64,000 nucleotides of DNA, taken from positions 2,398,001 through 2,462,000 of the forward strand of contig JBAIAA010000008.1 of assembly GCA_037893245.1 (NCBI GenBank). Direction: 5' to 3'. Every line of letters starts with the position of its first letter. Within the stretch, counting starts at the first letter, position 1. A program made the translations under genes and the position numbers. The notes beneath the pieces are model-generated. The model made no database searches, was not told the origin of the DNA, and was given only the letters and a program-made list of their open reading frames with translations. The stretch is from Crossaster papposus (lineage: Eukaryota; Echinodermata; Asteroidea; Velatida; Solasteridae). This document shows positions 4,765 to 61,359 of the stretch, piece by piece.

Positions 4765-4825
4765 TCACAGAGTAGAAACCCCGTATACTTCTGGAGGTCG
4801 CACTTGGCTGTTGTTGGTTTTGTTA

Positions 4826-8543: not shown

Positions 8544-8742
8544 TGAAAAAGTGATGCTTTATGAAACGAAAACATCATTTAATCTCTTTATTCACGGGTG
8601 ATTGCAACTTTTATTTCGATATTATTTGCAGTATTTAGGTTGTCTTTTTTCGCCATATCATGATCCAGCGCCTTGACGGCTGAGGAACCTCTATCTTTTC
8701 CACCCCGAGAAAAATCTCCGAAATTGACCGTTGCTTTGCAGT

Positions 8743-9330: not shown

Positions 9331-9383
9331 AGCGGCAAAGGCGAAAGGGAAGAAAGACTCACCATACTCCGGTAAACTTCTCT

Positions 9384-16914: not shown

Positions 16915-18273
16915 GGTTCAAATCAAGTGAACACTTTCATGTCTATGGAGGCCATCAGTACAGCACATTTTCAGCAGGTTGATTATAATGCCAGGTTACT
17001 CAGCCTATCCTGTTATTTTGATCAACTTTAGAGCCTGTACATGCAAAGACGTTTATCCCCTGAATGCAATAAATCTATTGGCCTACAGGCTATTTTCGAA
17101 AATAACATATCTCATATTGCCAGGCTGCATCAGGTGTGCAGAAACACTGTCTACACGCAAAAACAACTCACTCAATCGGCAGTCAATGAAGCCTTCATGG
17201 ATCAAGATCCAGATGATCAGACTCTATTCCATCTACCGGTCACCAAAGCCTTCCTTCACCAAGTGGTACTGGGAATCTTATTGATCTGCAAGGGAAGTTA
17301 TCGCAGTGCGCAGATGTTCCTACATGACCTGTTTGACACGGATATGTGTATCGGAACCATTTTCAACATCCACAACCATGCTTGTCATAAAGCGTCTGAG
17401 ATTAACGCCTCCTACGATCTTGGCTCAATCAGACAGAGCGCCTCTGATGAAATATATCACCGTAATAAGCCTCATTTAGCAGTCGTTGATATCGAAAGCC
17501 GTTACTGTGCGAGCCTTACACGAGAAGATAGCCGTGACGCAGAAACCTGGGCTATTCACCTCCTGGTGTTTACAGAGCAAGGCTTTCATCCCAAGGTTAA
17601 TATCAGCGATCAAGCGCTCGGGCTGAGCAATGCATTCCAAGAGATACTGCCAGACACTGAGCATCGTTTTGACCACTTCCACCTGATCAAAGCAGGGAAG
17701 GAACTGGTCAGGTACCTAAAAAACAAAAGAGAATCAGCAATAACGGCCCATATTAAGCTGCTTGAAAAAATGGAACGAGCAAAGAAAAAAAGTAAGGGGC
17801 ACACTCTTTCAACGAAGCTCGCCCTGGTCAATAGAAATACGACACAGGCAGAGGCTATCTATCGTCATGTTTCCACACTGAATGTCTGGCTCCAGCATGA
17901 TATTTTACAGCTGCCAGGGCACAACCCCGTTGATAGAGAAAAGCTCTTTGATTTCGTACTGGAGGAGCTGTCTGCAGTGGCTGACACCTCTCCACGTATC
18001 ATGGCCTTTGTGATATCCCTGACTCACCAAAAGGACAACCTATTGGCCGCCAGTCATGTGTTGAATAGAGAGTTCCAACAGATTGCAGCCCGCTACGCTA
18101 TTGCTGCGCAAGACGTCTGGGATATATGCTATGTGACCCGATACGATATACAAGCACCGAGCTACCACAAAAAAGCCGACGTATTGGCATCACGGATGGG
18201 GCCGATCTTCGAGCCCATCGAAGATGAGGTGCTGAAGGTAATCGCCGAAACCCCTCGGTGCAGCTCAATGGTA

Positions 18274-19943
18274 CCTAAATCCTGCAAATAATATCGAAAT
18301 AAAAGTTGCAATCACCCGTGAATAAAGAGATTAAATGATGTTTTCGTTTCATAAAGCATCACTTTTTCAATGAGCAAAAAAAACAAGTCAAAAGCACGTT
18401 TGAAGCAGCGGAAGGTACATTTCACTCAAGCTAAAAAGCCGCTTACCAGTCAGGCTGGACTTATCCCTGTGTTTCGCTTCCTGAACCGGATGGGGCTGGC
18501 CGACCTACTGGACAAACGGATTAATATTCAACGAGGCTCTAATGCCACTTTCCAACTGTCAGATGTCATTCTGATGGTAACCACCGGCATTCTGGCAGGT
18601 GCCAAAAGTCTGATGAAAGTGTGCACGGTCTGGCAGGATAGCGTTCTCCGAGAATGCACCCGTTTTCAACGCATTCCTTGTGACAGTCAATTTGGACGCA
18701 TTTTAAAGCTGTTCCACTTTGCCAGCGTCGTTGAACTGGAAACCGCTGTCCACGAAATGAGGGAGAGTGTTTGGAAACAGGCACTGCGCTCAGGAACATC
18801 TACCGTTTATGCTTTTAAACAGGTCACCATTGACCTCGATTCTACGGTAAAAACCTGTTTTGGTTTTCAGGAAGGCGCAAAGAAAGGGTTTAACGAGAAA
18901 AAAAGAGGGGCGCTGTCGTACCACCCGCAGCTGGCCTTTTGCGCGGAAACCAAAGAAGTGCTGCAGGGTTGGTTACGAAGTGGTGATGCCTACACTGCTA
19001 ATGGCTCCATAGAGTTTATGAAACAGTTGCTGGTTACTCTGCCTTCCCACATGAAGATTTTTTTCAGGGCTGATAGTGGCTACTTTGGTGGACCATTACT
19101 GACCTATCTGGAGGATTTAGGACATCGTTATCTGGTTAAGGTCAAACTGAAGAATCTACACAAACTGTTAATCCCGCAAGACTGGCAACCTGTCGTGCAT
19201 CAGCCAGGGTGGGAGTGGTGCGAGTTTCAACACTGCTGTGGTGACTGGGACCGGGCTCGTTGCTTCGTGGCTGTCCGGCAAAGAAAGATCGGGAAGCCAG
19301 AAAACACCCAGTGCGAATTGTTAGACCCGAAGCCAGAGTACGACTACTTCTGCTACGTGACTACTGAGTCGTTGAGTCCATGGGAGATCCATAAAGCGTA
19401 TGGCAAGCGGGCTACCTGCGAAACCTGGATCGAAGAGTGCAAAAACCAGATGGCTCTCGGGCAGATCAAAACCGATCATTTCATGGCAAACAGTGCGCTT
19501 ATGCAATGTGCAATACTGGCCTACAATACAACACGTTGGATGGCACTGATGAGTGGGAATCGTCAGTTGATGAAGTGGGAGCCGGAAAGCATTCGCTGCT
19601 ATATGATACGGGTTGCCGGAAAACTGTTGACAGGTAACAGGCAGTTGACCGTTGCCAGTAACAAAGAGCATCTCTACCAAACGGAGTGGGATGCTTGGCT
19701 AGCAGTAGGTGACTGTTTGTAAATAGCGAACAATGGATGATTAGAAAAACATTCTGCTAATGCGGAAGGAGTTATCGCGCCCTGATATCAGGCATAGCAG
19801 TAAGATGAACCAAACACGACGGCTCATGTGATTAAAATCCACTGAAAAGGTAAATATTTGCTCGATAGTAGCATAATCAGAATCAGGATGGCTTGATCAG
19901 TTGCTGCGATTGACCTGTTCGGGTTTGGATTGCAGGATTTAGG
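18274..19943 (+). mobile_element. IS1380-family insertion sequence, copy E (1670 bp)
   Basis: Intact terminal repeats (CCTAAATCCTGCA and inverse) and duplication TGGTA at 18269-18273 and 19944-19948. It has jumped into the transposase gene of N1 between the codons for SSMV and ENFN. Confidence 0.92.
18370..19722 (+). CDS. IS1380-family transposase, copy E
   Basis: The 450-residue transposase has the same amino-acid sequence as copy D at 5738-7090, with catalytic blocks TIDLDSTV, FRADSGYF and ETWIEECKNQ intact. The gene is alone in its IS. Identity to copy D with only scattered base differences (for example in the flanking tail near 19793) shows recent spread. Confidence 0.93.
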   Translation: MSKKNKSKARLKQRKVHFTQAKKPLTSQAGLIPVFRFLNRMGLADLLDKRINIQRGSNATFQLSDVILMVTTGILAGAKSLMKVCTVWQDSVLRECTRFQRIPCDSQFGRILKLFHFASVVELETAVHEMRESVWKQALRSGTSTVYAFKQVTIDLDSTVKTCFGFQEGAKKGFNEKKRGALSYHPQLAFCAETKEVLQGWLRSGDAYTANGSIEFMKQLLVTLPSHMKIFFRADSGYFGGPLLTYLEDLGHRYLVKVKLKNLHKLLIPQDWQPVVHQPGWEWCEFQHCCGDWDRARCFVAVRQRKIGKPENTQCELLDPKPEYDYFCYVTTESLSPWEIHKAYGKRATCETWIEECKNQMALGQIKTDHFMANSALMQCAILAYNTTRWMALMSGNRQLMKWEPESIRCYMIRVAGKLLTGNRQLTVASNKEHLYQTEWDAWLAVGDCL

Positions 19944-23740: not shown

Positions 23741-25416
23741 GGCATGGTTCAAATCAAGTGAACACTTTCATGTCTATGGAGGCCATCAGTACAGCACATT
23801 TTCAGCAGGTTGATTATAATGCCAGGTTACTCAGCCTATCCTGTTATTTTGATCAACTTTAGAGCCTGTACATGCAAAGACGTTTATCTCCTGAATGCAA
23901 GAAATCTATTGGCCTACAGGCTATTTTCGAAAATAACATATCTCATATTGCCAGGCTGCATCAGGTGTGCAGAAACACTGTCTACACGCAAAAACAACTC
24001 ACTCAATCGGCAGTCAATGAAGCCTTCATGGATCAAGATCCAGATGATCAGACTCTATTCCATCTACCGGTCACCAAAGCCTTCCTTCACCAGGTGGTAC
24101 TGGGAATCTTATTGATCTGCAAGGGAAGTTATCGCAGTGCGCAGATGTTCCTACATGACCTGTTTGACACGGATATGTGTATCGGAACCATTTTCAACAT
24201 CCACAACCATGCTTGTCATAAAGCGTCTGAGATTAACGCCTCCTACGATCTTGGCTCAATCAGACAGAGCGCCTCTGATGAAATATATCACCGTAATAAG
24301 CCTCATTTAGCAGTCGTTGATATCGAAAGCCGTTACTGTGCGAGCCTTACACGAGAAGATAGCCGTGACGCAGAAACCTGGGCTATTCACCTCCTGGAGC
24401 TTACAGAGCAAGGCTTTCATCCCAAGGTTAATATCAGCGATCAAGCGCTCGGGATGAGCAATGCATTCAAAGAGATACTGCCAGACACTGAGCATCGTTT
24501 TGACCACTTCCACCTGATCAAAGCAGGGAAGGAACTGGTCAGGTACCTAAAAAACAAAAGAGAATCAGCAATAACGGCCCATATTAAGCTGCTTGAAAAA
24601 ATGGAACGAGCAAAGAAAAAAAGTAAGGGGCACACTCTTTCAACGAAGCTCGCCCTGGTCAATAGAAATACGACACAGGCAGAGGCTATCTATCGTCATG
24701 TTTCCACACTGAATGCCTGGCTCCAGCATGATATTTTACAGCTGCCAGGGCACAACCCTGTTGATAGAGAAAAGCTCTTTGATTTCGTACTGGAGGAGCT
24801 GTCTGCAGTGGCTGACACCTCTCCACGTATCATGGCCTTTGTGATATCCCTGACTCACCAAAAGGACAACCTATTGGCCGCCAGTCATGTGTTGAATAGA
24901 GAGTTCCAACAGATTGCAGCCCGCTACGCTATTGCTGCGCAAGACGTCTGGGATATATGCTATGTGACCCGATACGATATACAAGCACCGAGCTACCACA
25001 AAAAAGCCGACGTATTGGCATCACGGATGGGGCCGATCTTCGAGCCCATCGAAGATGAGGTGCTGAAGGTAATCGCCGAAACCCCTCGGTGCAGCTCAAT
25101 GGTAGAGAATTTCAACAGCAGACTCAGGCCCTATCTGGACTCCCGTAAACAAATTACCTCTGAGAGCCTCAATCTAATCAGGTTCTATCTGAATCATCAC
25201 GTGTTTCTCCGGAGTAAGCATGCTTACATGCAAGGAAAAACACCAGCCGAGGTGATGACCGGCAATCCTCATCCCAATTGGCTGGAAATACTGGGGTTCC
25301 AGCGCTTCAGAAAAGCTGCATAAACTAACTCTCTTGTTGAGTCATTTCTATACCAGTCTCTGGTAGGGTTATGTTTGTTTGGTGTTCACTAAAAACAGCT
25401 GTTTTTGAACCATGCC
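23741..25416 (+). mobile_element. Unclassified insertion sequence N3, complete (1676 bp)
   Basis: Complete copy with ends GGCATGGTTCAAA and TTTGAACCATGCC and one long transposase gene. No target duplication is visible (left AAATCT, right CGAATG). It lies between a lipase remnant and an oxidase remnant, both cut at its borders, which implies a deletion beside the element. Confidence 0.85.
23872..25323 (+). CDS. Transposase of unclassified IS (N3), full length
   Basis: The 483-residue protein is a DDE-type transposase by context and motif order. An N-terminal HTH-like stretch (ISHIARLHQVCRNTVYTQKQ) is followed by VVDIESRY (possible first Asp), KVNISDQALGMSNAF, HRFDHFHLIKAGKEL (possible second Asp) and SSMVENFNSRLRPYLDSRK (possible Glu). 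The middle has a Lys-rich segment (MERAKKKSKG). I cannot place it in a named IS family with confidence; ISNCY or an ISL3-like group are candidates. Four copies or fragments in this window show it is mobile. Confidence 0.8.
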   Translation: MQRRLSPECKKSIGLQAIFENNISHIARLHQVCRNTVYTQKQLTQSAVNEAFMDQDPDDQTLFHLPVTKAFLHQVVLGILLICKGSYRSAQMFLHDLFDTDMCIGTIFNIHNHACHKASEINASYDLGSIRQSASDEIYHRNKPHLAVVDIESRYCASLTREDSRDAETWAIHLLELTEQGFHPKVNISDQALGMSNAFKEILPDTEHRFDHFHLIKAGKELVRYLKNKRESAITAHIKLLEKMERAKKKSKGHTLSTKLALVNRNTTQAEAIYRHVSTLNAWLQHDILQLPGHNPVDREKLFDFVLEELSAVADTSPRIMAFVISLTHQKDNLLAASHVLNREFQQIAARYAIAAQDVWDICYVTRYDIQAPSYHKKADVLASRMGPIFEPIEDEVLKVIAETPRCSSMVENFNSRLRPYLDSRKQITSESLNLIRFYLNHHVFLRSKHAYMQGKTPAEVMTGNPHPNWLEILGFQRFRKAA

Positions 25417-30940: not shown

Positions 30941-31020
30941 CTGGCCGAACCGCCCAGTGCGGACCCGCATGCTGGGTGGTGTGGGAGGAGTGGAGTCGCG
31001 AGGCTCCACCCTATCCCGAT
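29666..31020 (+). mobile_element. Group II intron L1, 5' ribozyme part deleted
   Basis: This copy begins exactly at the reverse-transcriptase ATG against IS903 copy 2, whereas the full copy (56567-58434) has about 510 further bases of ribozyme upstream. Domain V/VI are present at 30941-31020 (GAACCGCCCAG...CTGGGTGGT, then the GAGTGGAG...CTCCACCC stem) and end in CCCGAT. Without domains I-III it cannot splice. It is in antisense orientation to the 902-codon gene it truncated. Confidence 0.85.
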
Positions 31021-33719
31021 CCAGAGAGTGGTTTCGATAAACTCAGTTTAAAGCGACCGTCTTCAATCAGAGTGCTTCTCGAAAGAATGCCAAATTGAGG
31101 GGTATCAAGGCCAAACGCCGAACTTGCTGCCTTTGCAATGACAGCAGCTTTTAGGGAATCACTGCCATCCTGCTGTATCGCTTCGATGTATGCCTTTTGC
31201 ATGGTGTTATAAACATCGATGACTGTATTGAATGTATTGGCTTTTCTCAATGCTTTATCTTTACTCTGTCGCTTTACCATCATGGTGCCAGCTGTTGCAA
31301 TTTTTGCAGCGTCTTCAACACTATTTCTGGCAAGTTTACCGGCGAGAGGTACTACGTCTGTGCCTACTTTTGCAACACCGGACACGGTATGAATGCCCCC
31401 CATAGCCCGGCTGGATTTCTTCTTTAAGCTGATGTGACTTTCTTTCACTTCCCTGACATTGCTTAAGCTCTGGGTTAATTGATCAAAGTCGCTTTCACCC
31501 AGTGTGGCTTTATTCGCTTTAAGCAGTTTTTTTGTGTCATCGATACGTGTATTCATGGTCTTCTTGTTTTTTTTGCAATACCGAGCTTCCCTGAAATAAC
31601 CGCCAGCCCGTAGTCCTTCATCCAGGGGAATCAATGGAATGACGCTGGTGACAGATGCAGCTGCCTTGATAGCCGCATCACCGGTTACTTGTTTTTTCTT
31701 CCAGTGATCGTATCTTCTTAGCTGGTATAACGCCTCAATTTTTTCGGTGTTATTTTCAATAGTTGCAGTAATTGTGCTTCTCTCTGGTAGAGCGTTTGCT
31801 GCTTGTAGCTTCTGGAATAGCCTGTTTTTATCAATGGTTGTTTTATGCATACCAACAGGTAACAACATTTTTGTGTATTTTTTTCTTCTGATCTTATGCG
31901 CTCTTTTCTTCAAGCGGTTTTTGATGACCTTGGTTATCGTCCCTATGGACTTGTATTCCATGGTGATGCCATAGGCTCTAAGTGCTGGTTTTAATGTGTA
32001 TTTTATATAAGCAGGGTCTGAGAAATTCTCAAGGCTAATCACCTTGGGAATGCTGGCATCGTTAGGGAATATTGAGCGTAATGTTGTCAGTAAGCCATTA
32101 AGCTCGTCTCTGGGCTGATAACTTTTATGGCAGTGCCATAGTTTGGTAGCGTTATCTAGTATGACATTTCCTGACTCTCCCTGTATCAGGTGACTGACTC
32201 GGCCTAGGTCTTTAAAGGTGCTGAGGTTCATAGGTTCTGAAGTGTTATATCTATCAGAAAAAAGCTGCGTTTTTTCTTGTACATGGTGGGCTTGCTTGAT
32301 GCAATTTGCGCGCCTCACAATTTTGTGCCGTTTATAAACGGCCACGAGTGTCGCAAGTAGCGCACCACCGCCAGCGGCGGCAAAGTTGGTAGCGAGCGCT
32401 TCAGGGAGTTCTTCAAAGGGAGCAAGCCAGGTATCTGCCGCATCGAAACTGCTGGCAGGCACTTCCAGACTATCACTTGCGGTTTTAGTCGTAGTACCTG
32501 CTGTCATTACTTGTGTACCAAATAACTGTTCTAGGAGTGGACGGTTAACCTCAACGAGGTCCTCTTCCCCTATGGTTAATAGTCCAAGGCATTCAGTACT
32601 CATAAGTAGTCGCATATACTCTTGTAGTTGCATTGCTTCTGTAGGGGCTGACTGACTTGTTGGTGAAACTGAATTACTTGATTTAAGAGTTAGGGATTCA
32701 GAAGCAAGAGCTTGCGAAGCTGCACCTGTGTTCCGCGGCTCAACCGGGAATTGAGGGTTCATCTCATCGCTGAAAGTTTGAAATGATATAAGGGCATGCT
32801 GAGCAATGGCTGAGGTGCTTGGAGTATAACCTGCAAAACCAAGATTGGTATATTCTGTGGTGGCGGGCTTTACAACCAATGAGACATGAAGGCCTCTTTC
32901 TTTGGATGCTGCATACTCTGCTGTCCTGAGAGCAAGTTCTACATACTTCTTAGCTTCTTCAGTTGCAGTCTCTACGGGGTTTGTTACTTCTTTATAGCTG
33001 TCTGAAAATGTGAGAGGTGGCATTAGGAAGATAAGGTGTGTTAGATCAGGATTTTTCTCAAGGTGCGCTGGAACCATTGCGAGGAGTGTATTGAAGCCAT
33101 CTTGTGTTACTGTGTAGCTATAGAAGAGATGCTGATCTTCCTTAGCTCGCGCACTATTTTCTAGGGTAAAGGTTGGTATGCCTTCAGCCCTGAATACCAA
33201 ACCTTGCATACGATCATGAGTAAGTCCTGAAAAATCTACATGATCGTTTTTAGCGGCCTTACTGAGCGCCTCAAAGGAGTAGGAGAAAACCGGTTTAAGG
33301 CGGCTATCCAATCCACGGTGTTTATGAAACGATCTAACTGATTGATCAAAAAACAAATAAAAACTTCTGGCAACTACTGGTAATTTACTTTTTGGTGAGT
33401 TTTCAGTTGGCGCTGTTGCCACGAAAGCAGCCTGTGCATCAGTGTTGCTTTTTAATGCCTCAACAGTGTCCTTCCATACCTCTGAGGAGTTGTGTAAAGC
33501 AGGAAAGTATTGTGTCTTATTTGGTTGGCTACTGTTAGGAAACTTCCTTTTGTCTACAGTCAATGCATCATCATCATATATATTCAGAATTACTTCTGGT
33601 TTTCCTTCACCACTGATGTCAAAAGATGCCAGAGGGGCAGCAGCAACATAACTTTGATAAAGTAAGCAAGAGGAAATGGCAGCGTAAAGGGCTCGCAGGG
33701 GGAATGGGCTTCGTTTCAT
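31021..33719 (-). pseudogene. Large secreted protein of unknown function, 3' end cut by group II intron
   Basis: About 899 codons remain. A signal peptide is clear (residues 1-27, RALYAAISSCLLYQSYVAAA). Residues ~30-350 include FDQSVRSFHKHRG and GLTHDRMQGLVFRAEGIPTF. A hydrophobic segment lies near residue 450 (AAAGGGALLATLVAVY). The C-terminal half is very Lys/Arg-rich (KNRLKKRAHKIRRKKYTK) and ends with helical AMGGIHTVSGVAKVGTDVVPLAG. I recognise no domain. The final three codons before TAG come from the intron end (31011-31020), so the native C-terminus is missing. Surface or secreted interaction protein is a guess. Confidence 0.7.
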
Positions 33720-34229: not shown

Positions 34230-34978
34230 GGCATGGTTCAAATCAAGTGAACACTTTCATGTCTATGGAGGCCATCAGTACAGCACATTTTCAGCAGGTT
34301 GATTATAATGCCAGGTTACTCAGCCTATCCTGTTATTTTGATCAACTTTAGAGCCTGTACATGCAAAGACGTTTATCCCCTGAATGCAAGAAATCTATTG
34401 GCCTACAGGCTATTTCCGAAAATAACATATCTCATATTGCCAGGCTGCATCAGGTGTGCAGAAACACTGTCTACACGCAAAAACAACTCACTCAATCGGC
34501 AGTCAATGAAGCCTTCATGGATCAAGATCCAGATGATCAGACTCTATTCCATCTACCGGTCACCAAAGCCTTCCTTCACCAGGTGGTACTGGGAATCTTA
34601 TGGATCTGCAAGGGAAGTTATCGCAGTGCGCAGATGTTCCTACATGACCTGTTTGACACGGATATGTGTATCGGAACCATTTTCAACATCCACAACCATG
34701 CTTGTCATAAAGCGTCTGAGATTAACGCCTCCTACGATCTTGGCTCAATCAGACAGAGCGCCTCTGATGAAATATATCACCGTAATAAGCCTCATTTAGC
34801 AGTCGTTGATATCGAAAGCCGTTACTGTGCGAGCCTTACACGAGAAGATAGCCGTGACGCAGAAACCTGGGCTATTCACCTCCTGGAGCTTACAGAGCAA
34901 GGCTTTCATCCCAAGGTTAATATCAGCGATCAAGCGCTCGGGATGAGTAATGCATTCAAAGAGATACTGCCAGACACT
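34230..34978 (+). mobile_element. Unclassified IS copy N4, left half
   Basis: Left end GGCATGGTTCAAATC at 34230. The transposase frame (from 34361) is identical in type to N3 for about 205 codons, up to EILPDTG, and is cut at 34978 by an IS903 end. The 3' half is absent. Confidence 0.85.
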
Positions 34979-35034
34979 GGCGTTGTTGCATAAATAAAGC
35001 TCAGCCTGATCGAGCCTGTATCCAGGCCTTTTTC
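34979..35034 (-). mobile_element. 56-bp IS903-type terminal fragment
   Basis: GGCGTTGTTGCATAAATAAAG through CCAGGCCTTTTTC matches the 3' terminus of the minus-strand IS903 copies. It is cut by IS6 copy 1 at 35035. The change G-to-C in TTGCATAAAT is shared with IS903 copy 2. Confidence 0.85.
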
Positions 35035-50368: not shown

Positions 50369-50704
50369 TTAAGCACCACAACACTTTTTATATTTTTTGC
50401 CACTGTTGCAGACACACGGGTCATTACGGGACGGTGTTTTATCATTCACCTGTGTTTCGGTCTTTTTCAGCAGCGTGTCCAGCTCAACGGTATGTTCTGG
50501 CTGCTCTTCAGTAATAGCCACTTCAATAAAGATATCATGGGCTTTGGCAAGGGCCAGCAGCTCAGTACTGCGCTCTTCAGTCTGAACCGTTACCTGTACT
50601 GGGTTAGTTTCTGTGCCCGGACGCAGGACTTTTTTGGTTTTATACCCAACACTGCGGGTATCGGGCATATTGGTACGACCGCCTTTATAGAAGAATTTGG
50701 ACAT
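50369..50704 (-). CDS. SEC-C motif protein, PBPRA1643 type
   Basis: The 111 residues open with KFFYKGGRTNMPDTRSVGYK and end in a zinc-binding SEC-C motif SRNDPCVCNSGKKYKKCCG. The family is small and uncharacterised, common in marine gammaproteobacteria. The stop at 50369 lies near the convergent NIF3-like gene. Confidence 0.92.
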   Translation of the reverse strand: MSKFFYKGGRTNMPDTRSVGYKTKKVLRPGTETNPVQVTVQTEERSTELLALAKAHDIFIEVAITEEQPEHTVELDTLLKKTETQVNDKTPSRNDPCVCNSGKKYKKCCGA

Positions 50705-50907
50705 AAATCAGAACCACCTTAAAAATGAGAATCAGGACAGTATAAAGGAATTCTTGCTGGACTGCTTGTGGGGCTGATAGGTTGGTAAAGAAACACCAAA
50801 GGTTAAGTTACTATGGATGGAGCAGGCTCAAAACCACCTTCAGGCTCATCAACACCTAGAGAGAGGACTGATTCTGAGGGCTCAGGAAAGGGGCGGGGCT
50901 GCACTAA

Positions 50908-52206
50908 GGGGAGTGGCATAGAAAAGTTTACCGGAGTATGGTGAGTCTTTCTTCCCTTTCGCCTTTGCCGCTATGAATACCACAATTGATGTTGCCCCAG
51001 AATGTAAGAGTCTTCTTAAGCTCGCCGCAAAGAAACTGAAAGGCCATGATCGCAGGTTGTTTGTGGCTGAGGTGGCTGCAACACTCTGCTATGGCAGCCC
51101 CCGTCTCACTGAAACTGAGTTTGGTTTTGGTCGTCATACCGTAGAACTGGGTATGCATGAAAAATGCACAGGGATGATCTGTTACGGAAACTATGCTTCA
51201 TCCGGGCAGCGAAAGAGTGAAGATGTCTCGCCACAATTGGCAGAGGATATTCGCTGCCTTGTAGAACCGGAAAGTCAGGCAGACCCTCAGCTACGCAATA
51301 CGTTTGCCTATACACGGGTGACCGCAAAAAGTGTACGGCAGAAACTGATAGAAGAAAAAGACTGGGATAACGATTCCCTTCCTCAAGTGCGCACTATCAA
51401 TAATATCTTGAATCGTTTGGGATACAAGCTGCGTAAGGTTGCAAAAACAAAGCCTGAAAAAAAATTCCGGAAACCGATGCCATCTTTGCCAATATCCGCA
51501 GAGTCAGGGAAGAGGCCGACCAAAGAAAAAATGTCTTACAACTCAGCATAGACTGCAAAGCAACGGTCAATCTCGGAGATTGTTCTCGGGGTGGAAAAGA
51601 TAGAGGTTCCTCAGCCGTCAAGGCGCTGGATCATGATATGGCGAAAAAAGACAAAATGATTCCTTTTGGTATTCTGAATCTGGACAATGACCAACTCAGC
51701 GTATTTTACGGGGTCTCTTATAAAACCAGTGACTTTATCTGTGATGCTCTGGAGCAGTGGTGGTCGGACATTAAAGAAAGCTATCAGCATATAGATGAGC
51801 TGGTTATCTACGCGGACAACGGCCCAGCAAACAACAGCCATAGAACCCAGTTTCTTTTCAGAATGGTCATGTTTGCTCAGGCAACAGGGTTAAAAATTCA
51901 CCTTGTTTACTACCCTCCTTATCACAGCAAGTACAATCCCATTGAAAGGTCTTGGGCATTTCTGGAGGATCACTGGGGTGGAGCTTTATTGAATACAGCA
52001 ACAGCGGTTATTGAGTGGACAAAAAGCATGACGTGAGATGCATCAGTCCTATTGTTGCACTATTGGATAGAACCTATGAAAAGGGTGTAAAGCTCTGTAA
52101 ATCTGAGTTAGCAAAAATTAATCCTTATATTCTGCGTAACCCAGAGCTGAAAAAATGGAACGTTATGATCGTTCCAAAACTGGTAACTTCTTAATTGCTG
52201 CTTCCC
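50908..52206 (+). mobile_element. ISAzo13-family element I3 (about 1299 bp)
   Basis: The left end GGGGAGTGGCATAG is at 50908 after TAA (50905-50907), and the right end GCTGCTTCCC at 52206. It is in tandem with I4, separated by TTA. The pair is flanked by TAA on both sides (50905-50907 and 53511-53513), which shows a 3-bp duplication for the pair as one unit. Confidence 0.85.
50973..52180 (+). pseudogene. ISAzo13 transposase of I3, two frames plus a late frameshift
   Basis: ORF A (50973-51551) gives the N-terminal half (CYGSPRLTETEFGFGRHTVE, RTINNILNRLGYKL). After GAA AAA AAA the homology continues in the -1 frame (PETDAIFANIRR, LSIDCKATVNLGD, ALDHDM, YADNGPANN). ORF B then stops at 52036 after KSMT because one base is missing in TGGAGATG. 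The following CISPIVALLDR and EKGVKLCKS remain out of frame. The A8 site looks programmed, while the late break is a defect specific to this copy. Confidence 0.78.
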
Positions 52207-52209
52207 TTA

Positions 52210-53510
52210 GGGGAGTGGCATAGAGAAGTTTACCGGAGTATGGTGAGTCTTTCTTCCCTTTCGCCTTTGCCGCTATGAATACCACAATTGATGTTGCCCC
52301 AGAATGTAAGAGTCTTCTTAAGCTCGCCGCAAAGAAACTGAAAGGCCATGATCGCAGGTTGTTTGTGGCTGAGGTGGCTGAAACACTCTGCTATGGCAGC
52401 CCCCGTCTCACTGAAACTGAGTTTGGTTTTGGTCGTCATACCGTATGAACTGGGTATGCATGAAAAATGCACAGGGATGATCTGTTACGGAAACTATGCT
52501 TCATCCGGGAAGCGAAAGAGTGAAGATGTCTCGCCACAATTGGCAGAGGATATTCGCTGCCTTGTAGAACCGGAAAGGCAGGCAGACCCTCAGCTACGCA
52601 ATACGTTTGCCTATACACGGGTGACAGCAAAAAGTGTACGACAGAAACTGATAGAAGAAAAAGACTGGGATAACGATTCCCTTCCTCAAGTGCGCACTAT
52701 CAATAATATCTTGAATCGTTTGGGATACAAGCTGCGTAAGGTTGAAAAAACAAAGCCTGAAAAAAAATTCCGGAAACCGATGCCATCTTTGCCAATATCC
52801 GCAGAGTCAGGGAAGAGGCCGACCAAAGAAAAAATGTCTTACAACTCAGCATAGACTGCAAAGCAACGGTCAATCTCGGAGATTTTTCTCGGGGTGGAAA
52901 AGATAGAGGTTCCTCAGCCGTCAAGGCGCTGGATCATGATATGGCGAAAAAAGACAAAATGATTCCTTGTGGTATTCTGAATCTGGACAATGACCAACTC
53001 AGCGTATTTTACGGGGTCTCTTATAAAACCAGTGACTTTATCTGTGATGCTCTGGAGCAGTGGTGGTCGGGCATTAAAGAAAGCTATCAGCATATAGATG
53101 AGCTGGTTATCTACGCGGACAACGGCCCAGAAAACAACAGCCATAGAACCCAGTTTCTGTTCAGCATGGTCATGTTTGCTCAGGCAACAGGGTTAAAAAT
53201 TCACCTTGTTTACTACCCTCCTTATCACAGCAAGTACAATCCCATTGAAAGGTCTTGGGCATTTCTGGAGGATCACTGGGGTGGAGCTTTATTGAATACA
53301 GCAACAGCGGTTATTGAGTGGACAAAAAGCATGACGTAGAGATGCATCAGTCCTATTGTTGCACTATTGGATAGAACCTATGAAAAGGGTGTAAAGCTCT
53401 GTAAATCTGGGTTAGCAAAAATTAATCCTTATATTCTGCGTAACCCAGAGCTGAAAAAATGGAACGTTATGATCGTTCCAAAACTGGTAACTTCTTAATT
53501 GCTGCTTCCC
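52210..53510 (+). mobile_element. ISAzo13-family element I4 (about 1301 bp)
   Basis: Second member of the tandem pair, left end at 52210 and right end GCTGCTTCCC at 53510, then TAA. It is almost identical to I3. Confidence 0.85.
52275..53487 (+). pseudogene. ISAzo13 transposase of I4, inactivated twice
   Basis: An extra T in ACCGTATGAAC (near 52445) shifts ORF A after FGRHTV. The A8 run and -1 continuation are as in I3. Near its end, the Trp codon in MTWRC has become TAG (53337), so ORF B stops at 53339. Conserved blocks YADNGPENN and YYPPYHSKYNPIE are intact between the defects. This copy is dead. Confidence 0.78.
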
Positions 53511-53670
53511 TAAGTCGGGAGCTAGGCGATTTCCACTTGATCCGCGTTTACTGTTATCCGCGCTAGCGCCAAGGAAAAGAGATCATTCTACTGGTTCTAC
53601 TCCTTCACCATCACCCTCTCATAGTATTCGAGAGAAAAGTGTAAAAGTATACGATGGAATAGATCGTCTA

Positions 53671-53712
53671 TATCCTGAAGATATAATAGAATATCCTGAA
53701 GATATAATAGAG
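53671..53712 (+). repeat. 21-bp tandem duplication inside the shredded gene
   Basis: TATCCTGAAGATATAATAGA is repeated head to tail (53671-53691 and 53692-53712), giving YPEDIIE twice in the encoded protein and keeping the frame. Confidence 0.85.
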
Positions 53713-53837
53713 AAGCTGGACGTACTTAATTCAGATAATTTTGCTGCGTTCCAAGCTTGGCTTAAAGAAAAAAGAAATCACTGTCTGGAGCCATTAATAG
53801 AATATGAAAATTTGACTAACTTCAGGGATTCATTAAG

Positions 53838-54074
53838 CAGGGCTTACGCATCAATGGTTACTGTAAAATCTTAATTTCTAGTGGATTTACCTAGATATTG
53901 ATCTGTATTCGTGATTATTATGCACTCTTAACCTTTTTGAATGACAGTGGCTGTATATTACGGAGGGTTTACATCGAAAAAAAATTGATCAATTATTTGG
54001 GGTATATGAAAGTCTCTTCTGACACAGGAACTACAGAAGATAAACCATAGTTCCAATATGATGCGTAAGCCCTG
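53838..54074 (+). mobile_element. MITE copy 2 (237 bp)
   Basis: Ends CAGGGCTTACGCATCA and TGATGCGTAAGCCCTG; duplication TTCATTAAG at 53829-53837 and 54075-54083. Same family as 1050-1287. Confidence 0.9.
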
Positions 54075-54211
54075 TTCATTAAGTCAGTTGGATTTTTTGG
54101 GGGATCCCGAAAGTAAACTATCAGATGCAGAAAAAGAGACATCTAATACAAGACGCCAACAGGAGATGATTTCAGTAAAAAAGCGGATTAAAGATACTAG
54201 GATAAATAGTA

Positions 54212-55881
54212 CCTAAATCCTGCAAATAATATCGAAATAAAAGTTGCAATCACCCGTGAATAAAGAGATTAAATGATGTTTTCGTTTCATAAAGCATCAC
54301 TTTTTCAATGAGCAAAAAAAACAAGTCAAAAGCACGTTTGAAGCAGCGGAAGGTACATTTCACTCAAGCTAAAAAGCCGCTTACCAGTCAGGCTGGACTT
54401 ATCCCTGTGTTGCGCTTCCTGAACCGGATGGGGCTGGCCGACCTACTGGACAAACGGATTAATATTCAACGAGGCTCTAATGCCACTTTCCAACTGTCAG
54501 ATGTCATTCTGATGGTAACCACCGGCATTCTGGCAGGTGCCAAAAGTCTGATGAAAGTGTGCACGGTCTGGCAGGATAGCGTTCTCCGAGAATGCACCCG
54601 TTTTCAACGCATTCCTTGTGACAGTCAATTTGGACGCATTTTAAAGCTGTTCCACTTTGCCAGCGTCGTTGAACTGGAAACCGCTGTCCACGAAATGAGG
54701 GAGAGTGTTTGGAAACAGGCACTGCGCTCAGGAACATCTACCGTTTATGCTTTTAAACAGGTCACCATTGACCTCGATTCTACGGTAAAAACCTGTTTTG
54801 GTTTTCAGGAAGGCGCAAAGAAAGGGTTTAACGAGAAAAAAAGAGGGGCGCTGTCGTACCACCCGCAGCTGGCCTTTTGCGCGGAAACCAAAGAAGTGCT
54901 GCAGGGTTGGTTACGAAGTGGTGATGCCTACACTGCTAATGGCTCCATAGAGTTTATGAAACAGTTGCTGGTTACTCTGCCTTCCCACATGAAGATTTTT
55001 TTCAGGGCTGATAGTGGCTACTTTGGTGGACCATTACTGACCTATCTGGAGGATTTAGGACATCGTTATCTGGTTAAGGTCAAACTGAAGAATCTACACA
55101 AACTGTTAATCCCGCAAGACTGGCAACCTGTCGTGCATCAGCCAGGGTGGGAGTGGTGCGAGTTTCAACACTGCTGTGGTGACTGGGACCGGGCTCGTTG
55201 CTTCGTGGCTGTCCGGCAAAGAAAGATCGGGAAGCCAGAAAACACCCAGTGCGAATTGTTAGACCCGAAGCCAGAGTACGACTACTTCTGCTACGTGACT
55301 ACTGAGTCGTTGAGTCCATGGGAGATCCATAAAGCGTATGGCAAGCGGGCTACCTGCGAAACCTGGATCGAAGAGTGCAAAAACCAGATGGCTCTCGGGC
55401 AGATCAAAACCGATCATTTCATGGCAAACAGTGCGCTTATGCAATGTGCAATACTGGCCTACAATACAACACGTTGGATGGCACTGATGAGTGGGAATCG
55501 TCAGTTGATGAAGTGGGAGCCGGAAAGCATTCGCTGCTATATGATACGGGTTGCCGGAAAACTGTTGACAGGTAACAGGCAGTTGACCGTTGCCAGTAAC
55601 AAAGAGCATCTCTACCAAACGGAGTGGGATGCTTGGCTAGCAGTAGGTGACTGTTTGTAAATAGCGAACAATGGATGATTAGAAAAACATTCTGCTAATG
55701 CGGAAGGAGTTATCGCGCCCTGATATCAGGAATAGCAGTAAGATGAACCAAACACGACGGCTCATGTGATTAAAATCCACTGAAAAGGTAAATATTTGCT
55801 CGATAGTAGCATAATCAGAATCAGGAGGGCTTGATCAGTTGCTGCGATTGACCTGTTCGGGTTTGGATTGCAGGATTTAGG
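54212..55881 (+). mobile_element. IS1380-family insertion sequence, copy F (1670 bp)
   Basis: Terminal repeats CCTAAATCCTGCA; duplication TAGTA at 54207-54211 and 55882-55886. Intact copy inside the shredded gene. Confidence 0.92.
54308..55660 (+). CDS. IS1380-family transposase, copy F
   Basis: The 450 residues are the same as copies D and E except for a Leu in place of Phe in LIPVLRFLNRMG. Catalytic blocks TIDLDSTV, FRADSGYF and ETWIEECKNQ are complete. Confidence 0.93.
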   Translation: MSKKNKSKARLKQRKVHFTQAKKPLTSQAGLIPVLRFLNRMGLADLLDKRINIQRGSNATFQLSDVILMVTTGILAGAKSLMKVCTVWQDSVLRECTRFQRIPCDSQFGRILKLFHFASVVELETAVHEMRESVWKQALRSGTSTVYAFKQVTIDLDSTVKTCFGFQEGAKKGFNEKKRGALSYHPQLAFCAETKEVLQGWLRSGDAYTANGSIEFMKQLLVTLPSHMKIFFRADSGYFGGPLLTYLEDLGHRYLVKVKLKNLHKLLIPQDWQPVVHQPGWEWCEFQHCCGDWDRARCFVAVRQRKIGKPENTQCELLDPKPEYDYFCYVTTESLSPWEIHKAYGKRATCETWIEECKNQMALGQIKTDHFMANSALMQCAILAYNTTRWMALMSGNRQLMKWEPESIRCYMIRVAGKLLTGNRQLTVASNKEHLYQTEWDAWLAVGDCL

Positions 55882-55961
55882 TAGTATAAGTAATAGTGAA
55901 ATAGAAACTATTGTTAGTAGTTATCAGGGCGGGGAAAATGATCATAAAGAAGCATTGATGC

Positions 55962-56188
55962 CAGGGCTTACGCATCCATGGTTACTGTAAAATCTTAATT
56001 TACCTAGATATTGATCTGTATTCGTGATTATTATGCACTCTTAACCTTTTTTGAATGACAGTGGCTGTATATTACGGAGGGTTTACATCGAAAAAAAATG
56101 GATCAATTATTTGGGGCATATGAAAGTCTCTTCTGACACAGGAGCTACAGAAGATAAACCATAGTTCCAATATGATGCGTAAGCCCTG
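55962..56188 (+). mobile_element. MITE copy 3 (227 bp)
   Basis: Ends CAGGGCTTACGCATC and TGATGCGTAAGCCCTG, with a 10-bp duplication GCATTGATGC at 55952-55961 and 56189-56198. Compared with copy 1 it has a short internal deletion near 55998 (TTTCTAGTGGA missing). Confidence 0.9.
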
Positions 56189-56566
56189 GCATTGATGCAT
56201 AGTATCGTTAATGCCAGAAATGAGCAGAGGCAAAAGGTAGTAGATATTTGGGGTAGTCTGAAGGCTCCAGATGAAAAAAAAGAAGATCCTAAGACATGGC
56301 AGAAAATTGTTGTGACTTTGGATATGAAAGCAAATTGTTTTTATGCTTTTTGTCAGTTTTCTACAGGTGATATTAGATATTTATTACAGTTAAATCAGTT
56401 AAAAGAAAAAAGTGATCCTGCAATTTTAGGGTTGAGAATAAAAATTAGTGATGACATTGCAAGAGCATCCTTAACTTTTCCAGGTAGAGCAAAGGAGATT
56501 ATAGGGTGGGACACAGAACAGAAAGCTGAAGCCATCAAGGCTAGAGGTTCGTACTTATTAGACAGC

Positions 56567-58434
56567 ATCGGGATAGGGTGGAGCCTCGCGACTCCACTCC
56601 TCCCACACCACCCAGCATGCGGGTCCGCACTGGGCGGTTCGGCCAGTTAAACCACACGTAATCTTTCCAGTCCCAGCAGATCAAAACGCTTAATAGTAAA
56701 CGCTTTGCTCAGAGCAGGTGAGGCACTCATGCGCCAATACTTCTTCCTTGATACCACGGCTTTACTGGCTGAAGCGATCGACACTCCAAGTCGCCTTAAT
56801 CCTTTAAAACGTCGTTTTGCCGTTTTCCACTGATACCATATCAGACATCTTAAACGCCTTCTTACCCAAGCCTCCAGCGAGCTTAATTGTCCCTGTGTAT
56901 CCGTTATTCCAAAATACTGCCGCCATCCACGAAGGTAACGATTCAGGGCTGTTAATCGTTGCTTGCACGACCGCCCTGATTTTCTGGTTAACGTCCTCAC
57001 AGCAACCTTAAAACGCCGTTTGCTGTTGTCAGCAAGTTCAAGTTTTCCTTCTGGCGTGAATGAGAAGCCCAGAAATGTTCGTTCCCAAGGCCGCGCTACC
57101 GCACTTTTATCTCGATTCACTTTCAGCTTCATCCGGGTTTCAATAAACCTCACCAGACTATTCATGACTCGCTGCGCTGCCCGTCGGCTTTTAACAAAAA
57201 CACGACAGTCGTCAGCATACCTGACGTACCGCAGACCTCGCTTGTCCAGCTCTTTATCCAATTCATCCAACACAATATTGGACAATACTGGCGAGAGCGG
57301 CCCACCTTGCGGTGTTCCTTCCCGTCGATAGTGGATAACACCATTCTCCATGACACCAGCATTGAGAAACCGCCGAATCAGCCTTAATATATCCTTGTCG
57401 TCCATGTAGGCCGCCAGCTTCGCCATCAGACGATCATGGTTTACCCTATCAAAGAATTTCGATAAGTCGATATCCACCACCCAGTCATAACCAGACTGCA
57501 TGTATCGCTGGGCTTGCCTAATCGTTTGGTGCCCAGACCTTCCCGGCCTGAATCCGTAGCTATACGCTGAAAAACGGGGTTCCCAGTCGGTTTGCAGTAC
57601 TTGTTGAATGGCTTGCTGGACTAAACGATCCAGTACCGTCGGTATTCCCAGATTCCGTTCCCCTCCCTGCGGTTTTGGTATCACTACCCGCCTTACCGGT
57701 TGAGGCCTCCAAAGACCGTCTTTAAGCAGGGTTGTAACGGTTCTTCCGTAGTTCTTTAAATAGTCATGAAGAGCTTGAGTCGTCATTCCATCGACTCCCG
57801 GTGCTCCCTGGTTACGTTTAACCCGTTGATAGGCTCGATTAAGATTACTACTGGCTGCAATACGATCCATGATGCGCTCATTGCAACCCATGGTCGGGTT
57901 TTCGTAATCATGCATTGCCATCAGATCCTCGACTACCTGAGTGAATATCAGCCGGTTCCGCCGGAGTCCATCGACTCAGGTCTCGGTGTTTGCCGAGTGT
58001 CAGTCTCTCGGACTGAGTGAAATACATAAACTACTCGCCTCTCTGTACCGTTCGGGCCTTCGCAAACACTAACTCTTTGCTACTATGCCCTCTGCTGACT
58101 TCTGTGTAGCGGTCAAATCACCTTACGATAATCTCAGTCCAATACTCTGGACACCACACAGACCTCCCGGGGTAAGACACACCACTTTCCCTGCACAACT
58201 GCCAGATATACTGCTCAAGCTTCCGAGTGAGTAGAGGGCTTTGTTTTGCTTGGCAAACTCGCCCCTACTTGAACAGCCTCGTATCTGATTTCTGTTCGTC
58301 AGCTCGCAGATTTGTTCCACGCTTCTTTCAGCCTATACCTCACGATATAAACCTTGCGCTTCGCTAGTCCTTCGCCCTCACTAGGCTGGACAGGGGACTT
58401 TCACCCCATAAGTGGTGTGCCGTGCCCGGCACAC
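56567..58434 (-). mobile_element. Group II intron L2, complete (1868 bp, class C-like)
   Basis: On the minus strand the intron starts GTGTGCCGGGCACGGCACAC at 58434, soon followed by GGGGTGAAAGTCCCC. It encodes the RT in the middle and ends with domain V (GAACCGCCCAG...CTGGGTGGT) and domain VI closing in CCCGAT at 56567. The 5' exon on that strand contains the hairpin AGCCT-GTGA-AGGCT just before the insertion site, as expected for class C introns, which insert after stem-loops. It interrupts the unknown gene in antisense orientation without a target duplication. Confidence 0.85.
56647..57921 (-). CDS. ltrA: Group II intron reverse transcriptase/maturase, copy L2
   Basis: The 424-residue RT/maturase has YADD in RYADDCRVF, GTPQGGPLSP, WVVDIDLSKFFDRVNHDRL and the maturase domain WVRRRLRCLIWYQWK. 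It differs from L1 in a few residues (for example CNERIMD, RNLGIPT, VNRDKSAVA, FTPEGK). No endonuclease domain is present. Its intron is structurally complete, so this copy may still be mobile. Confidence 0.94.
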   Translation of the reverse strand: MAMHDYENPTMGCNERIMDRIAASSNLNRAYQRVKRNQGAPGVDGMTTQALHDYLKNYGRTVTTLLKDGLWRPQPVRRVVIPKPQGGERNLGIPTVLDRLVQQAIQQVLQTDWEPRFSAYSYGFRPGRSGHQTIRQAQRYMQSGYDWVVDIDLSKFFDRVNHDRLMAKLAAYMDDKDILRLIRRFLNAGVMENGVIHYRREGTPQGGPLSPVLSNIVLDELDKELDKRGLRYVRYADDCRVFVKSRRAAQRVMNSLVRFIETRMKLKVNRDKSAVARPWERTFLGFSFTPEGKLELADNSKRRFKVAVRTLTRKSGRSCKQRLTALNRYLRGWRQYFGITDTQGQLSSLEAWVRRRLRCLIWYQWKTAKRRFKGLRRLGVSIASASKAVVSRKKYWRMSASPALSKAFTIKRFDLLGLERLRVV

Positions 58435-58796
58435 CAAGAAGAGCCTTCACAGGCTGATAAATTGTTGGGAGATGTTACAACTATTTTTTCAAGATCGCTT
58501 GGTATTAAGCATGATCTTGAAGCGTTAAAACGGCACTTAGGCAAGCTGCATACGTATAGTTATGAAAAAAAAGAAGAAGCAGCGTTAGAAAAACGCATTA
58601 CTAAAGCTACTGGTGAACAGAAGAGCCTATTGGAATGGAATCATTTTGCTACTGAAATAAAAGATAACTTGTCAAAATTACCCGTTTTTCAAGGAGATGA
58701 CTTTTTGCGTTATTGGCCTAGTACTCCGTCCGGCAGAAGATGATAGTTTACTGAAGGCTATTCTAATAACTCCGAGTTCATAACACCGGAGTTATT

Positions 58797-59300
58797 ATGA
58801 CCATCAAATATCATGTTCGACTCAGCGAGGAAGAACGATCAATACTTGAACGGCTTATCAAGCAGGAAAAGCCCAAAGTTGCACAACACAAAAAACGTAA
58901 AGCCAATATCCTTCTGGCTATCGATGAAAACCATGATCCACTGCAGCATGATCAGGTAGCCAAAGCTTTCCATGTTAGGCCGCTTACTATCACTCGCCTC
59001 AGGCAACGATTTGTTGAAGAAGGGCTTGATGTCGCTGTCAATGGAAAACTAAGCAGCCACGGTCGGGTACGTAAACTCGATGGCGAAGCCGAAGCTCACC
59101 TTATTGCCCTTACCTGCTCACCACCACCGGAAGGAGCCAGCCGATGGACGCTAAACTTACTGACAGATCGCATGATTGAGCTCAGATACGTCGAATCGAT
59201 TTCCAGAAGCACAGTACATGAGGGGCTAAAAAAAATGAGCTTAAGCCCTGGCAAAAAAAGGAATGGTGTATACCTGCGGAAGAAAGCGCCAACTTTGTGA
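58797..59300 (+). CDS. IS630 transposase, ORF A (HTH part)
   Basis: The 167 residues include the N-terminal YHVRLSEEERSILERLIKQ and two helix-turn-helix stretches (HDQVAKAFHVRPLTITRLRQ, CSPPPEGASRWTLNLL). At GGG CTA AAA AAA ATG (eight A at 59228-59235) the family homology passes to the -1 frame (NELKPWQKKEWC), so residues after ~147 of this frame are not native. A fused product by -1 frameshifting is expected. Confidence 0.85.
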   Translation: MTIKYHVRLSEEERSILERLIKQEKPKVAQHKKRKANILLAIDENHDPLQHDQVAKAFHVRPLTITRLRQRFVEEGLDVAVNGKLSSHGRVRKLDGEAEAHLIALTCSPPPEGASRWTLNLLTDRMIELRYVESISRSTVHEGLKKMSLSPGKKRNGVYLRKKAPTL

Positions 59301-59947
59301 GTGCGATGGAGGATATTCTTGAAGTCTATAAACGTCCTCTTGATCCAAGGCGTCCGCTTGTTTGCCTTGATGAAAGTAGCAAGCAGCATGTTAAAGAAGT
59401 CGTTAATCCAATGCCTGTTGAGCCTGGAAAACCGGAGCGTTATGACACAGAGTATGAACGTAATGGCGTCAGCAATCTGTTCATGATGTTTGAACCCTTG
59501 ACAGGTTGGCGGCATGTTGAGGTGACTGATCGTAGGACAGCGATTGATTGGGCTCATCAAATCAAGTTTCTGGTCGATGTTCGCCACAAAGATGCAGAGA
59601 AAGTTATACTGGTTGGAGACAACTTGAACACGCATTCTCCCGCATCACTTGATAAAGCTTTTTCCCCAGAAGAAGCCCGCAGAATGATTGATAAGCTTGA
59701 GTTTCATTACACCCCAAAGCATGGCAGTTGGCTGGATATGGCCGAAATTGAGCTGAGTATACTGAGTCGCCAATGTCTGGATCGGCGTATCCCTACCCAA
59801 GATATTCTCCGGAGAGAAGTCAAAGCCTGGGAGGAGAAGCGCAACGCAAGAAAAGTGACTACACAGTGGCGTTTTACCACTGAAGACGCTCGGATAAAAC
59901 TTAAGAGACTGTATCCAAAGATGCCAGAGCTTGATAATACAGAGTAG
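59226..59947 (+). CDS. IS630 transposase, ORF B (DDE part, reached by -1 frameshift)
   Basis: The frame opens at the A8 run and continues NELKPWQKKEWC, SANFVSAMEDILEVYKRPLD. DDE blocks follow: VCLDESSKQH (Asp), VILVGDNLNTHSP (Asp) and LEFHYTPKHGSWLDMAEIE (Glu). The first in-frame start codon listed by size would be near 59297 and would miss part of the domain. Catalytic residues are complete, so the element is probably active if frameshifting occurs. Confidence 0.85.
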
Positions 59948-60321
59948 ATTGAGAGCCTCCATAGAACATAAACCAGACTATTAGAGCAGCACTTTTTCCC
60001 ATGAAAAATTGGGAAATGGGGCACTTTGCGTGAAATAACCCATTTTTTTGTCCTGCCACTCAAAATTGACTCAAATAACAGGACGGCTAACCATTGTCGA
60101 CCATTTACACAAAAAGCTGACCGATCGGTTATCTGTGATTATCAAATGGTGTCGGATGGAGTACTAGTATATATGCAGGATTTATGACACCTCGAAGTAG
60201 CACGCCTATTTCGACACCACGTAGCGGTACACCTAATCCACCAGAGGCACAAAGGGGATCCAATGATGATACAATGGAATAACGTTTGCACTGTGCGTAG
60301 CTGGAACATTGGAGCACTCTA

Positions 60322-61359
60322 ATGATACAAATCGGCGTAGTAGGCTTTGGCCTGTCCGCAACCATCTTTCACTTACCTTTCATTACTGCATCAAGCGACT
60401 ATGAGTTGGTAGCCATCAGTTCCAGCCAGCGTGCAAAAATAAGAGACGAGTACCCCTTCGTTGAGTGCTTCACCTGCGCAGAAACATTGATTGAACAATC
60501 ACAGGCAGAACTGGTCATTATTACAGCCCCAAACGAGGTGCATTACCATCTGGCTAGGCGTTGTCTGGAGCAAGGCAAGCATGTGGTGCTAGAAAAACCG
60601 ATGGTGGTGAATAGTGAAGAAGCAGACAAACTAAACCAGTTAGCAGAAGAAAAAGGTTTGGTACTTTCTGTGTACCATAACCGTCGTTGGGACGGTGACT
60701 TCCTGACGGTTAAAAAGCTCATTGAGAATCAACAGCTCGGTCAACTGCATTATTTTGAATCTCATTTTGACCGTTTTCGCCCGGTAGTGCGTGACCGTTG
60801 GCGCGAACAACCAGGTGTTGGTACAGGGATGTTATTTGATTTAGGTTCTCACCTGATCGATCAGGCATTGGTGCTTTTCGGGCTCCCGCCGTCTGTGACA
60901 GGCCAGTGTTTAGCGTTGCGAGAAGGCTCAAATACAACAGATTACTTTCATGTACTGATGCACTATCAAGGTTTGGAAGTGATATTACATGCCAGCCCTT
61001 TTTGCGCAGAGCCTAATCAACGGTTTCAGCTTCAGGGCAGTCAAGGGACTTACAGTAAATGTGGGTTAGACCCTCAGGAAGATCAGCTCAGGCAGGGTAT
61101 GACGCCTGACGCTAAAGGTTTTGGTGTTGACACAAAAGACAACGATGGAATGCTATTCAGAGAAAATCTGTTAGAACGGATAGCCACAGCAAAAGGATGT
61201 TATTCCACTTATTATGAGCAACTGGCTAAAGCGATATTGCACGCAGAACCTGTGCCGGTAACAGGGGCCGATGGTGCGAATGTTATTAAGCTGTTGGCGT
61301 TGGCCGAACGCAGTAGCAACGAAGGAAAAACACTGCCTGTTGCTCTTCAGATAAAATAA
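60322..61359 (+). CDS. Gfo/Idh/MocA family NAD(P)-dependent oxidoreductase
   Basis: The 345 residues start with a Rossmann motif IGVVGFGLSATIFHLPFI and have VIITAPNEVHYHLARRCLEQGKHVVLEKPM (the conserved EKP lysine), SVYHNRRWDGDFLTVK and GTGMLFDLGSHLIDQALVLFG. These enzymes act on sugars or inositol-like compounds; the closest pattern is the YdgJ/YhhX-type subgroup. The substrate is unknown. It starts 40 bases after the end of the shredded gene. Confidence 0.93.
   Translation: MIQIGVVGFGLSATIFHLPFITASSDYELVAISSSQRAKIRDEYPFVECFTCAETLIEQSQAELVIITAPNEVHYHLARRCLEQGKHVVLEKPMVVNSEEADKLNQLAEEKGLVLSVYHNRRWDGDFLTVKKLIENQQLGQLHYFESHFDRFRPVVRDRWREQPGVGTGMLFDLGSHLIDQALVLFGLPPSVTGQCLALREGSNTTDYFHVLMHYQGLEVILHASPFCAEPNQRFQLQGSQGTYSKCGLDPQEDQLRQGMTPDAKGFGVDTKDNDGMLFRENLLERIATAKGCYSTYYEQLAKAILHAEPVPVTGADGANVIKLLALAERSSNEGKTLPVALQIK

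What the first reader, a model, noticed from the sequence alone, without database searches (positions are those of the whole stretch)
50813..60282. One 463-codon gene shredded by seven mobile elements at six sites, perfectly reconstructable
Seven short stretches of non-mobile sequence lie between I3/I4, MITE 2, IS1380 F, MITE 3, intron L2 and IS630 J2. With one copy of each duplication set aside (TAA, TTCATTAAG, TAGTA, GCATTGATGC, none for the intron, TA) they total 1392 bases, a multiple of three, and read as one frame with no other stop. A gene with this many clean insertions and no decay in the remaining sequence was hit in quick succession, or is a preferred landing site. The encoded protein is Ser/Pro/Thr-rich at both ends and has no known domain.
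Basis: partly seen in the sequence, partly recalled or inferred. Interest (0 to 1): 0.9.

Follow-up and report, generated by a model that had tools for sequence, protein, structure and literature searches.

The report
Orphan gene shredded by mobile elements

Summary
Seven pieces (95, 324, 128, 75, 368, 286, 116 nt) total 1392 nt, 463 codons plus stop; all six junctions keep phase and no internal stop occurs. Simulated pieces had a mean of 33 stops, never zero in 3000 runs. The inserts are an ISAzo13-type tandem dimer, two MITEs, an IS1380, an antisense group II intron and an IS630. Exact duplications at five of six sites show that the flanks were contiguous. The window lies in a 5.30-Mb bacterial contig of a 1.02-Gb assembly. 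The same families occur in all nine spaced 10-kb stretches, 25 elements, and the MITE has at least 40 near-full copies. Of 23 other MITE sites with a duplication, 15 keep open, in-phase flanks. At this density a six-site cluster is expected somewhere if about half of the non-mobile DNA tolerates insertions. No homologue of pieces 2, 5 or 6 was found. Best reading: a dispensable, AT-rich orphan gene killed in a recent genome-wide insertion burst. Order of hits and function are unresolved. The pieces were not read through as one protein.

The parts
50813..50907 (+). piece 1 of the broken gene: start codon, Ser/Pro/Thr-rich; ends with one TAA copy
50908..53510 (+). ISAzo13-type tandem dimer (units 50908-52206 and 52210-53510, TTA between), flanked by TAA
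   Evidence: PF07592; ends
53514..53837 (+). piece 2; ends with one TTCATTAAG copy
53838..54074 (+). MITE 2, duplication TTCATTAAG
54084..54211 (+). piece 3; ends with one TAGTA copy
54212..55881 (+). IS1380 element F (transposase 54308-55660), duplication TAGTA
   Evidence: PF13701; 7 of 7 full copies with a 5-bp duplication
55887..55961 (+). piece 4; ends with one GCATTGATGC copy
55962..56188 (+). MITE 3, duplication GCATTGATGC
56199..56566 (+). piece 5
56567..58434 (-). group II intron with reverse transcriptase/maturase (56647-57921), antisense to the gene, no duplication
   Evidence: RF02001, RF01998; PF00078, PF08388; ends from four copies
58435..58720 (+). piece 6; ends with one TA copy
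58721..60164 (+). IS630 element J2, duplication TA
   Evidence: PF13565, PF13358
60167..60282 (+). piece 7: Ser/Pro/Thr-rich end and stop codon

Best explanation
The locus is the remains of a single 463-codon gene that this bacterium no longer needs. Shown: one gene split at six sites by seven elements, in a chromosome where the same families are frequent and their copies highly similar. Inferred: transposons expanded recently, probably under relaxed selection in a bacterium living with a host. A first hit killed the gene; later hits were neutral and piled up before point mutations could break the frame. The gene's low G+C may have raised the hit rate, since the MITEs at least sit in AT-rich neighbourhoods. 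The intron lies antisense, so splicing of the gene's own transcript could not remove it.
For: Exact duplications at five of six sites, phase kept at all six, no internal stop. Family-typical duplications in other copies: IS1380 5 bp in 7 of 7 full copies; MITE 8-10 bp at 24 of 28 distinct sites. Elements in 9 of 9 spaced stretches, 25 in 66.6 kb of non-mobile DNA; window 32. MITE at least 40 near-full copies, 98-100% identical (capped). MITE sites with a duplication, this gene's left out: 15 of 23 have 40 or more open codons on both sides in kept phase; the same test on all 24 sites gave 16, against 2 and 4 with the phase shifted. Positive control: TonB receptor of this window cut by a MITE, its halves matching successive parts of PF00593. 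Six-site clusters expected per genome: 0.28 if all non-mobile DNA is insertable, 4.1 if half is. MITE neighbourhoods mean G+C 0.395; 11 fetched stretches 0.45-0.49.
Against: If insertions were uniform over all non-mobile DNA the cluster would be unusual: P about 0.23 for a 1392-bp window and 0.10 for the actual 1181-bp span. The density rests on 25 elements of nine families. Several inserts are about 1% from the nearest fetched copy; with assumed mutation rates an unbroken frame has P 0.12 at 1% and 0.015 at 2% neutral divergence, so the hits need not be one burst. No homologue or strain shows the uninterrupted gene. Codon usage supports the frame weakly. Host association is inferred from the assembly alone.
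Confidence: 0.85

Rival explanations
1. The gene is a preferred landing site: something in its sequence or chromosomal position draws elements of several unrelated families.
For: Seven elements at six sites in 1.39 kb against 0.38 per kb over nine spaced stretches; AT-rich pieces and AT-rich MITE neighbourhoods.
Against: Five mechanistically different kinds of element with different targets took part; at this density a six-site cluster is expected somewhere if about half of the non-mobile DNA is insertable; the window holds a second dense pile-up at 1948-10067.
Confidence: 0.1
2. Loss of the gene is favoured in the host, so insertions were selected rather than tolerated.
For: Only that the gene is an orphan with Ser/Pro/Thr-rich ends, single copy where tested.
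Against: Selection would explain the first hit but not five further ones in a gene already dead.
Confidence: 0.03
3. The pieces were never one gene; the joined frame is chance or an assembly artefact.
For: No homologue found; codon usage weak.
Against: Exact duplications at five sites, phase kept at six, zero stops where about 33 are expected; element ends match other copies.
Confidence: 0.02

Closest known systems
Transposon-expanded symbiont genomes, e.g. ceratioid anglerfish symbionts (PMC6020299; passages read)
   Same: Massive transposon expansion; pseudogenes adjacent to or interrupted by transposase sequence
   Different: Those genomes are reduced to 2.1 and 2.6 Mb and all their transposases were classed as pseudogenes; here the contig has 5.3 Mb and at least the IS1380 transposase frame is open
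Amoebophilus asiaticus IS-rich genome (PMC3196728; start of abstract and three passages seen)
   Same: Very high transposase content in a host-associated bacterium
   Different: Its title reports no evidence of recent transposition; here near-identical copies suggest recent activity
Endozoicomonas genomes (PMC5240137; passages read)
   Same: Transposase enrichment in genomes of about 2.8 to 6.3 Mb from bacteria of marine animals
   Different: Whether the present bacterium belongs there was not tested
Haloquadratum walsbyi mobile-element conglomerates (PMC3119063; passages read)
   Same: MITEs and transposons with elements frequently targeted by other elements
   Different: The passages concern elements inside elements; here un-nested hits in one gene

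Membership tests
IS1380 (element F) | IS1380-type DDE transposase | tested here: met
   PF13701 3.2e-44 for F; NCBIfam IS1380 transposase model 1.5e-81 for the partial copy at 7251-8543, whose DNA is 99.8% identical to F
IS1380 (element F) | terminal inverted repeats and a short duplication of fixed length | tested here: met
   CCTAAATCCTGCAA at both ends; 5-bp duplication in 7 of 7 full copies, one of them an 88% variant
IS630 (element J2) | DDE_3 transposase and TA duplication | tested here: met
   PF13565 and PF13358 in two adjoining frames; TA on both sides in 3 of 3 full copies
ISAzo13 (units I3, I4) | ISAzo13-type DDE domain | tested here: met
   PF07592, split over two frames
ISAzo13 (units I3, I4) | duplication of fixed length | tested here: inconclusive
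   dimer flanked by TAA on both sides, single copy L009 by TTA and TAA
Group II intron (L2) | intron RNA domains and reverse transcriptase/maturase | tested here: met
   RF02001 147.8 bits and RF01998 57.7 bits; PF00078 and PF08388; splicing not testable
MITE (2 and 3) | short, inverted-repeat ends, duplication, many copies | tested here: met
   237 and 227 nt, inverted arms, duplications, at least 40 copies; the transposase that moves it was not identified
Injected effector of a host-associated bacterium (the broken gene) | secretion signal, injection machinery, host target | not tested
   Ser/Pro/Thr-rich ends only; the search for a type III secretion family did not complete

The most novel reading that the evidence does not exclude
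This gene is a true multi-family insertion hot spot, or its loss is favoured in the host, so that transposons of three families, MITEs and a retrotransposing intron converge on one short gene.
Probability: 0.12. Interest if true: 0.5.

Novelty: new member of a known kind. Interest (0 to 1): 0.25.

Why it matters
It is a clear snapshot of gene death: the insertion scars are exact and the frame is still readable, so with other strains the locus could order and time an insertion burst in a probably host-associated bacterium. It also warns that gene calling would list several short false genes here. It does not show a new mechanism.

Tried and rejected
Homologue searches by separate pieces found nothing: p5 in genome contigs and viral contigs; p5, p6 and p2 in the protein collection. 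The collections' answers warn that records very near the window's genome may be left out. The neighbouring oxidoreductase brought three distant loci (two Rheinheimera, 51%; one Flavobacterium MAG, 28%); none of the seven pieces matches them at E up to 1. A fold of p5 alone had mean pLDDT 37.9 and was not used. A scan for similar Ser/Pro/Thr-rich tails in 44 sequences, 277.5 kb with the window, found no convincing relative. IS1380 relatives in plasmids are all under 60% identical and do not name the organism. Not searched in the protein collection: p1, p3, p4, p7; not scanned against families: p1, p4, p7. The p3, p5 and p6 ranges used overran my final boundaries by a few residues where they touch an insert. 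Literature searches for one gene with many independent insertions listed no plainly equivalent case; listings only, apart from the papers named, so I do not claim that none is in print.

Full report
What is there. Between a SEC-C-motif gene (50369-50704, minus strand) and an oxidoreductase gene (60322-61359) lie seven stretches of non-mobile DNA separated by mobile elements. In order the inserts are a tandem dimer of an ISAzo13-type element (50908-53510), MITE 2 (53838-54074), an IS1380 element (54212-55881), MITE 3 (55962-56188), a group II intron on the minus strand (56567-58434) and an IS630 element (58721-60164). Five of the six sites carry an exact duplication. The intron carries none, as expected from general knowledge of group II introns.

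My first intron boundary gave 1398 nt. Four intron copies, three full and one 5'-truncated, all end in the same six bases, so those belong to the intron, and the pieces total 1392 nt, 463 codons plus stop. Each piece was read on its own in the phase inherited from the one before. There is no internal stop; 3000 simulated sets of the same dinucleotide make-up had a mean of 33.1 stops, a minimum of 15 and never zero. G+C at codon position 3 is 0.27, against 0.50 in twelve non-mobile window genes. A codon-usage score prefers the predicted frame in the sum, but in only 4 of 7 pieces one by one. So the stops and the phase carry the case; codon usage adds little and says that the gene's composition differs from its neighbours'.

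Where it is. The window is C8:2398001-2462000 of an assembly of 1,023,315,904 bases in 1841 contigs; C8 has 5,301,754 bases. Its genes (HldE, MsbA, TypA, a UbiH-type hydroxylase) are by my own knowledge those of a gammaproteobacterium. It is therefore most likely a bacterial chromosome sequenced along with a larger organism. Neither genus nor host was determined; a likeness to Endozoicomonas in size and G+C is recalled, not tested.

How ordinary it is. In nine 10-kb stretches spaced along C8 (L008-L016; L006 and L007, which adjoin the window, left out) nine element families taken from the window account for 25 elements and 23.4 of 90 kb, or 0.38 per kb of non-mobile DNA. Each of the nine holds at least one. 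The window has 32, or 0.95 per kb; the gene has seven in 1.39 kb. The MITE search scored 40 of 100 first-look candidates and listed 40 near-full copies at 98-100%, one of them on another contig, C1027. The 30 loci returned hold 33 full-length copies at 28 distinct sites: 24 with a duplication (18 of 10 bp, 5 of 9, 1 of 8) and 4 without. The mean G+C of their 400-bp neighbourhoods, other elements included, is 0.395; the 11 fetched stretches have 0.45-0.49. Of the 24 sites with a duplication, 16 keep at least 40 open codons on both sides in phase, against 2 and 4 when the right flank is shifted by one or two bases; at 60 codons it is 12 against 1 and 2. Two of the 16 lie in the window, this gene and the TonB receptor; without this gene it is 15 of 23. 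Some of these frames may be transposase genes. Genes freshly cut by these elements are thus common here. Seven of the 30 MITE loci hold three or more elements within about 1.5 kb on either side, one of them being this gene's.

Is six sites in one gene too many? The density extrapolates to about 1470 elements. Simulation yields 0.28 six-site clusters of gene size per genome if all non-mobile DNA can be hit, 4.1 if half can and 18 if a third can. For the actual 1181-bp span the values are 0.10, 2.3 and 11. Since essential genes cannot be hit, a cluster like this is expected somewhere without target preference, though in the uniform case it would be mildly unusual. The fraction that is insertable was assumed, not measured.

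Timing. IS1380 F and MITE 2 each differ from another fetched copy by one base, IS630 J2 by 5, the intron by 11 and a 5-base gap, the ISAzo13 units by 14 and 11 with a one-base gap each, MITE 3 by 3 and an 11-base gap. Under assumed rates of stop and indel mutation the chance of an unbroken frame is 0.66 at 0.2% neutral divergence, 0.35 at 0.5%, 0.12 at 1% and 0.015 at 2%. So the gene died recently, but one single burst is not shown. The six inserts are not nested in one another, so one chromosome does not give their order. The ISAzo13 dimer may have entered as one unit, since its outer flanks match while the triplet between the units differs; that is inference.

What the protein was. Pieces 2, 5 and 6 have no relative among about 5.8 billion proteins at the sensitivity of that search. 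Protein pieces 2 and 6 match only their own place in the assembly, apart from one chance-level hit for piece 2 (E 3.7), and so does the DNA of piece 5. Family scans of p2, p3, p5 and p6 gave nothing significant. It is an orphan with Ser/Pro/Thr-rich ends. A role at the interface with a host is a guess.

Verdict. It is best explained as a dispensable orphan gene dying in a genome-wide insertion burst, a known kind of event in host-associated bacteria (PMC6020299, PMC5240137; passages read). A hot spot or selected loss is not excluded.

Noticed in passing
22-1849: TonB-dependent receptor gene cut by a MITE (1050-1287, duplication GTACTCTGT); the halves match successive parts of PF00593.
   Followed up: partly
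1948-10067: Pile-up of eight matches to IS1380-, IS5- and ISAzo13-type elements, whole and in fragments.
   Followed up: partly
31011-33719: 902-aa protein without a Pfam hit at 1e-5 or an NCBIfam hit at 1e-10; its start looks like a signal peptide (by eye); it ends beside a 5'-truncated intron copy.
   Followed up: no
50908-53510: Head-to-tail ISAzo13-type dimer with TTA between the units and TAA outside.
   Followed up: partly
L016:2045-5790: Two copies of the same group II intron directly head to tail.
   Followed up: no
L028 (G000:C1027:106594-106831): One MITE copy on a contig other than C8, perhaps a plasmid or a second bacterial contig.
   Followed up: no
G000:C8:1641764-1642249: By coordinates, a MITE copy inserted in another MITE copy of opposite orientation.
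   Followed up: no
17041-18291, 23872-25323, 34361-34993: Near-identical repeated protein without a Pfam hit at 1e-5, probably the transposase of an element not classified here; one copy is cut by IS1380 and one lies beside an IS1380 fragment.
   Followed up: no
58797-59947 and 50973-52036: The IS630 and ISAzo13 transposases are each split over two frames, with runs of A in the sequence (by eye); programmed frameshifting not tested.
   Followed up: no
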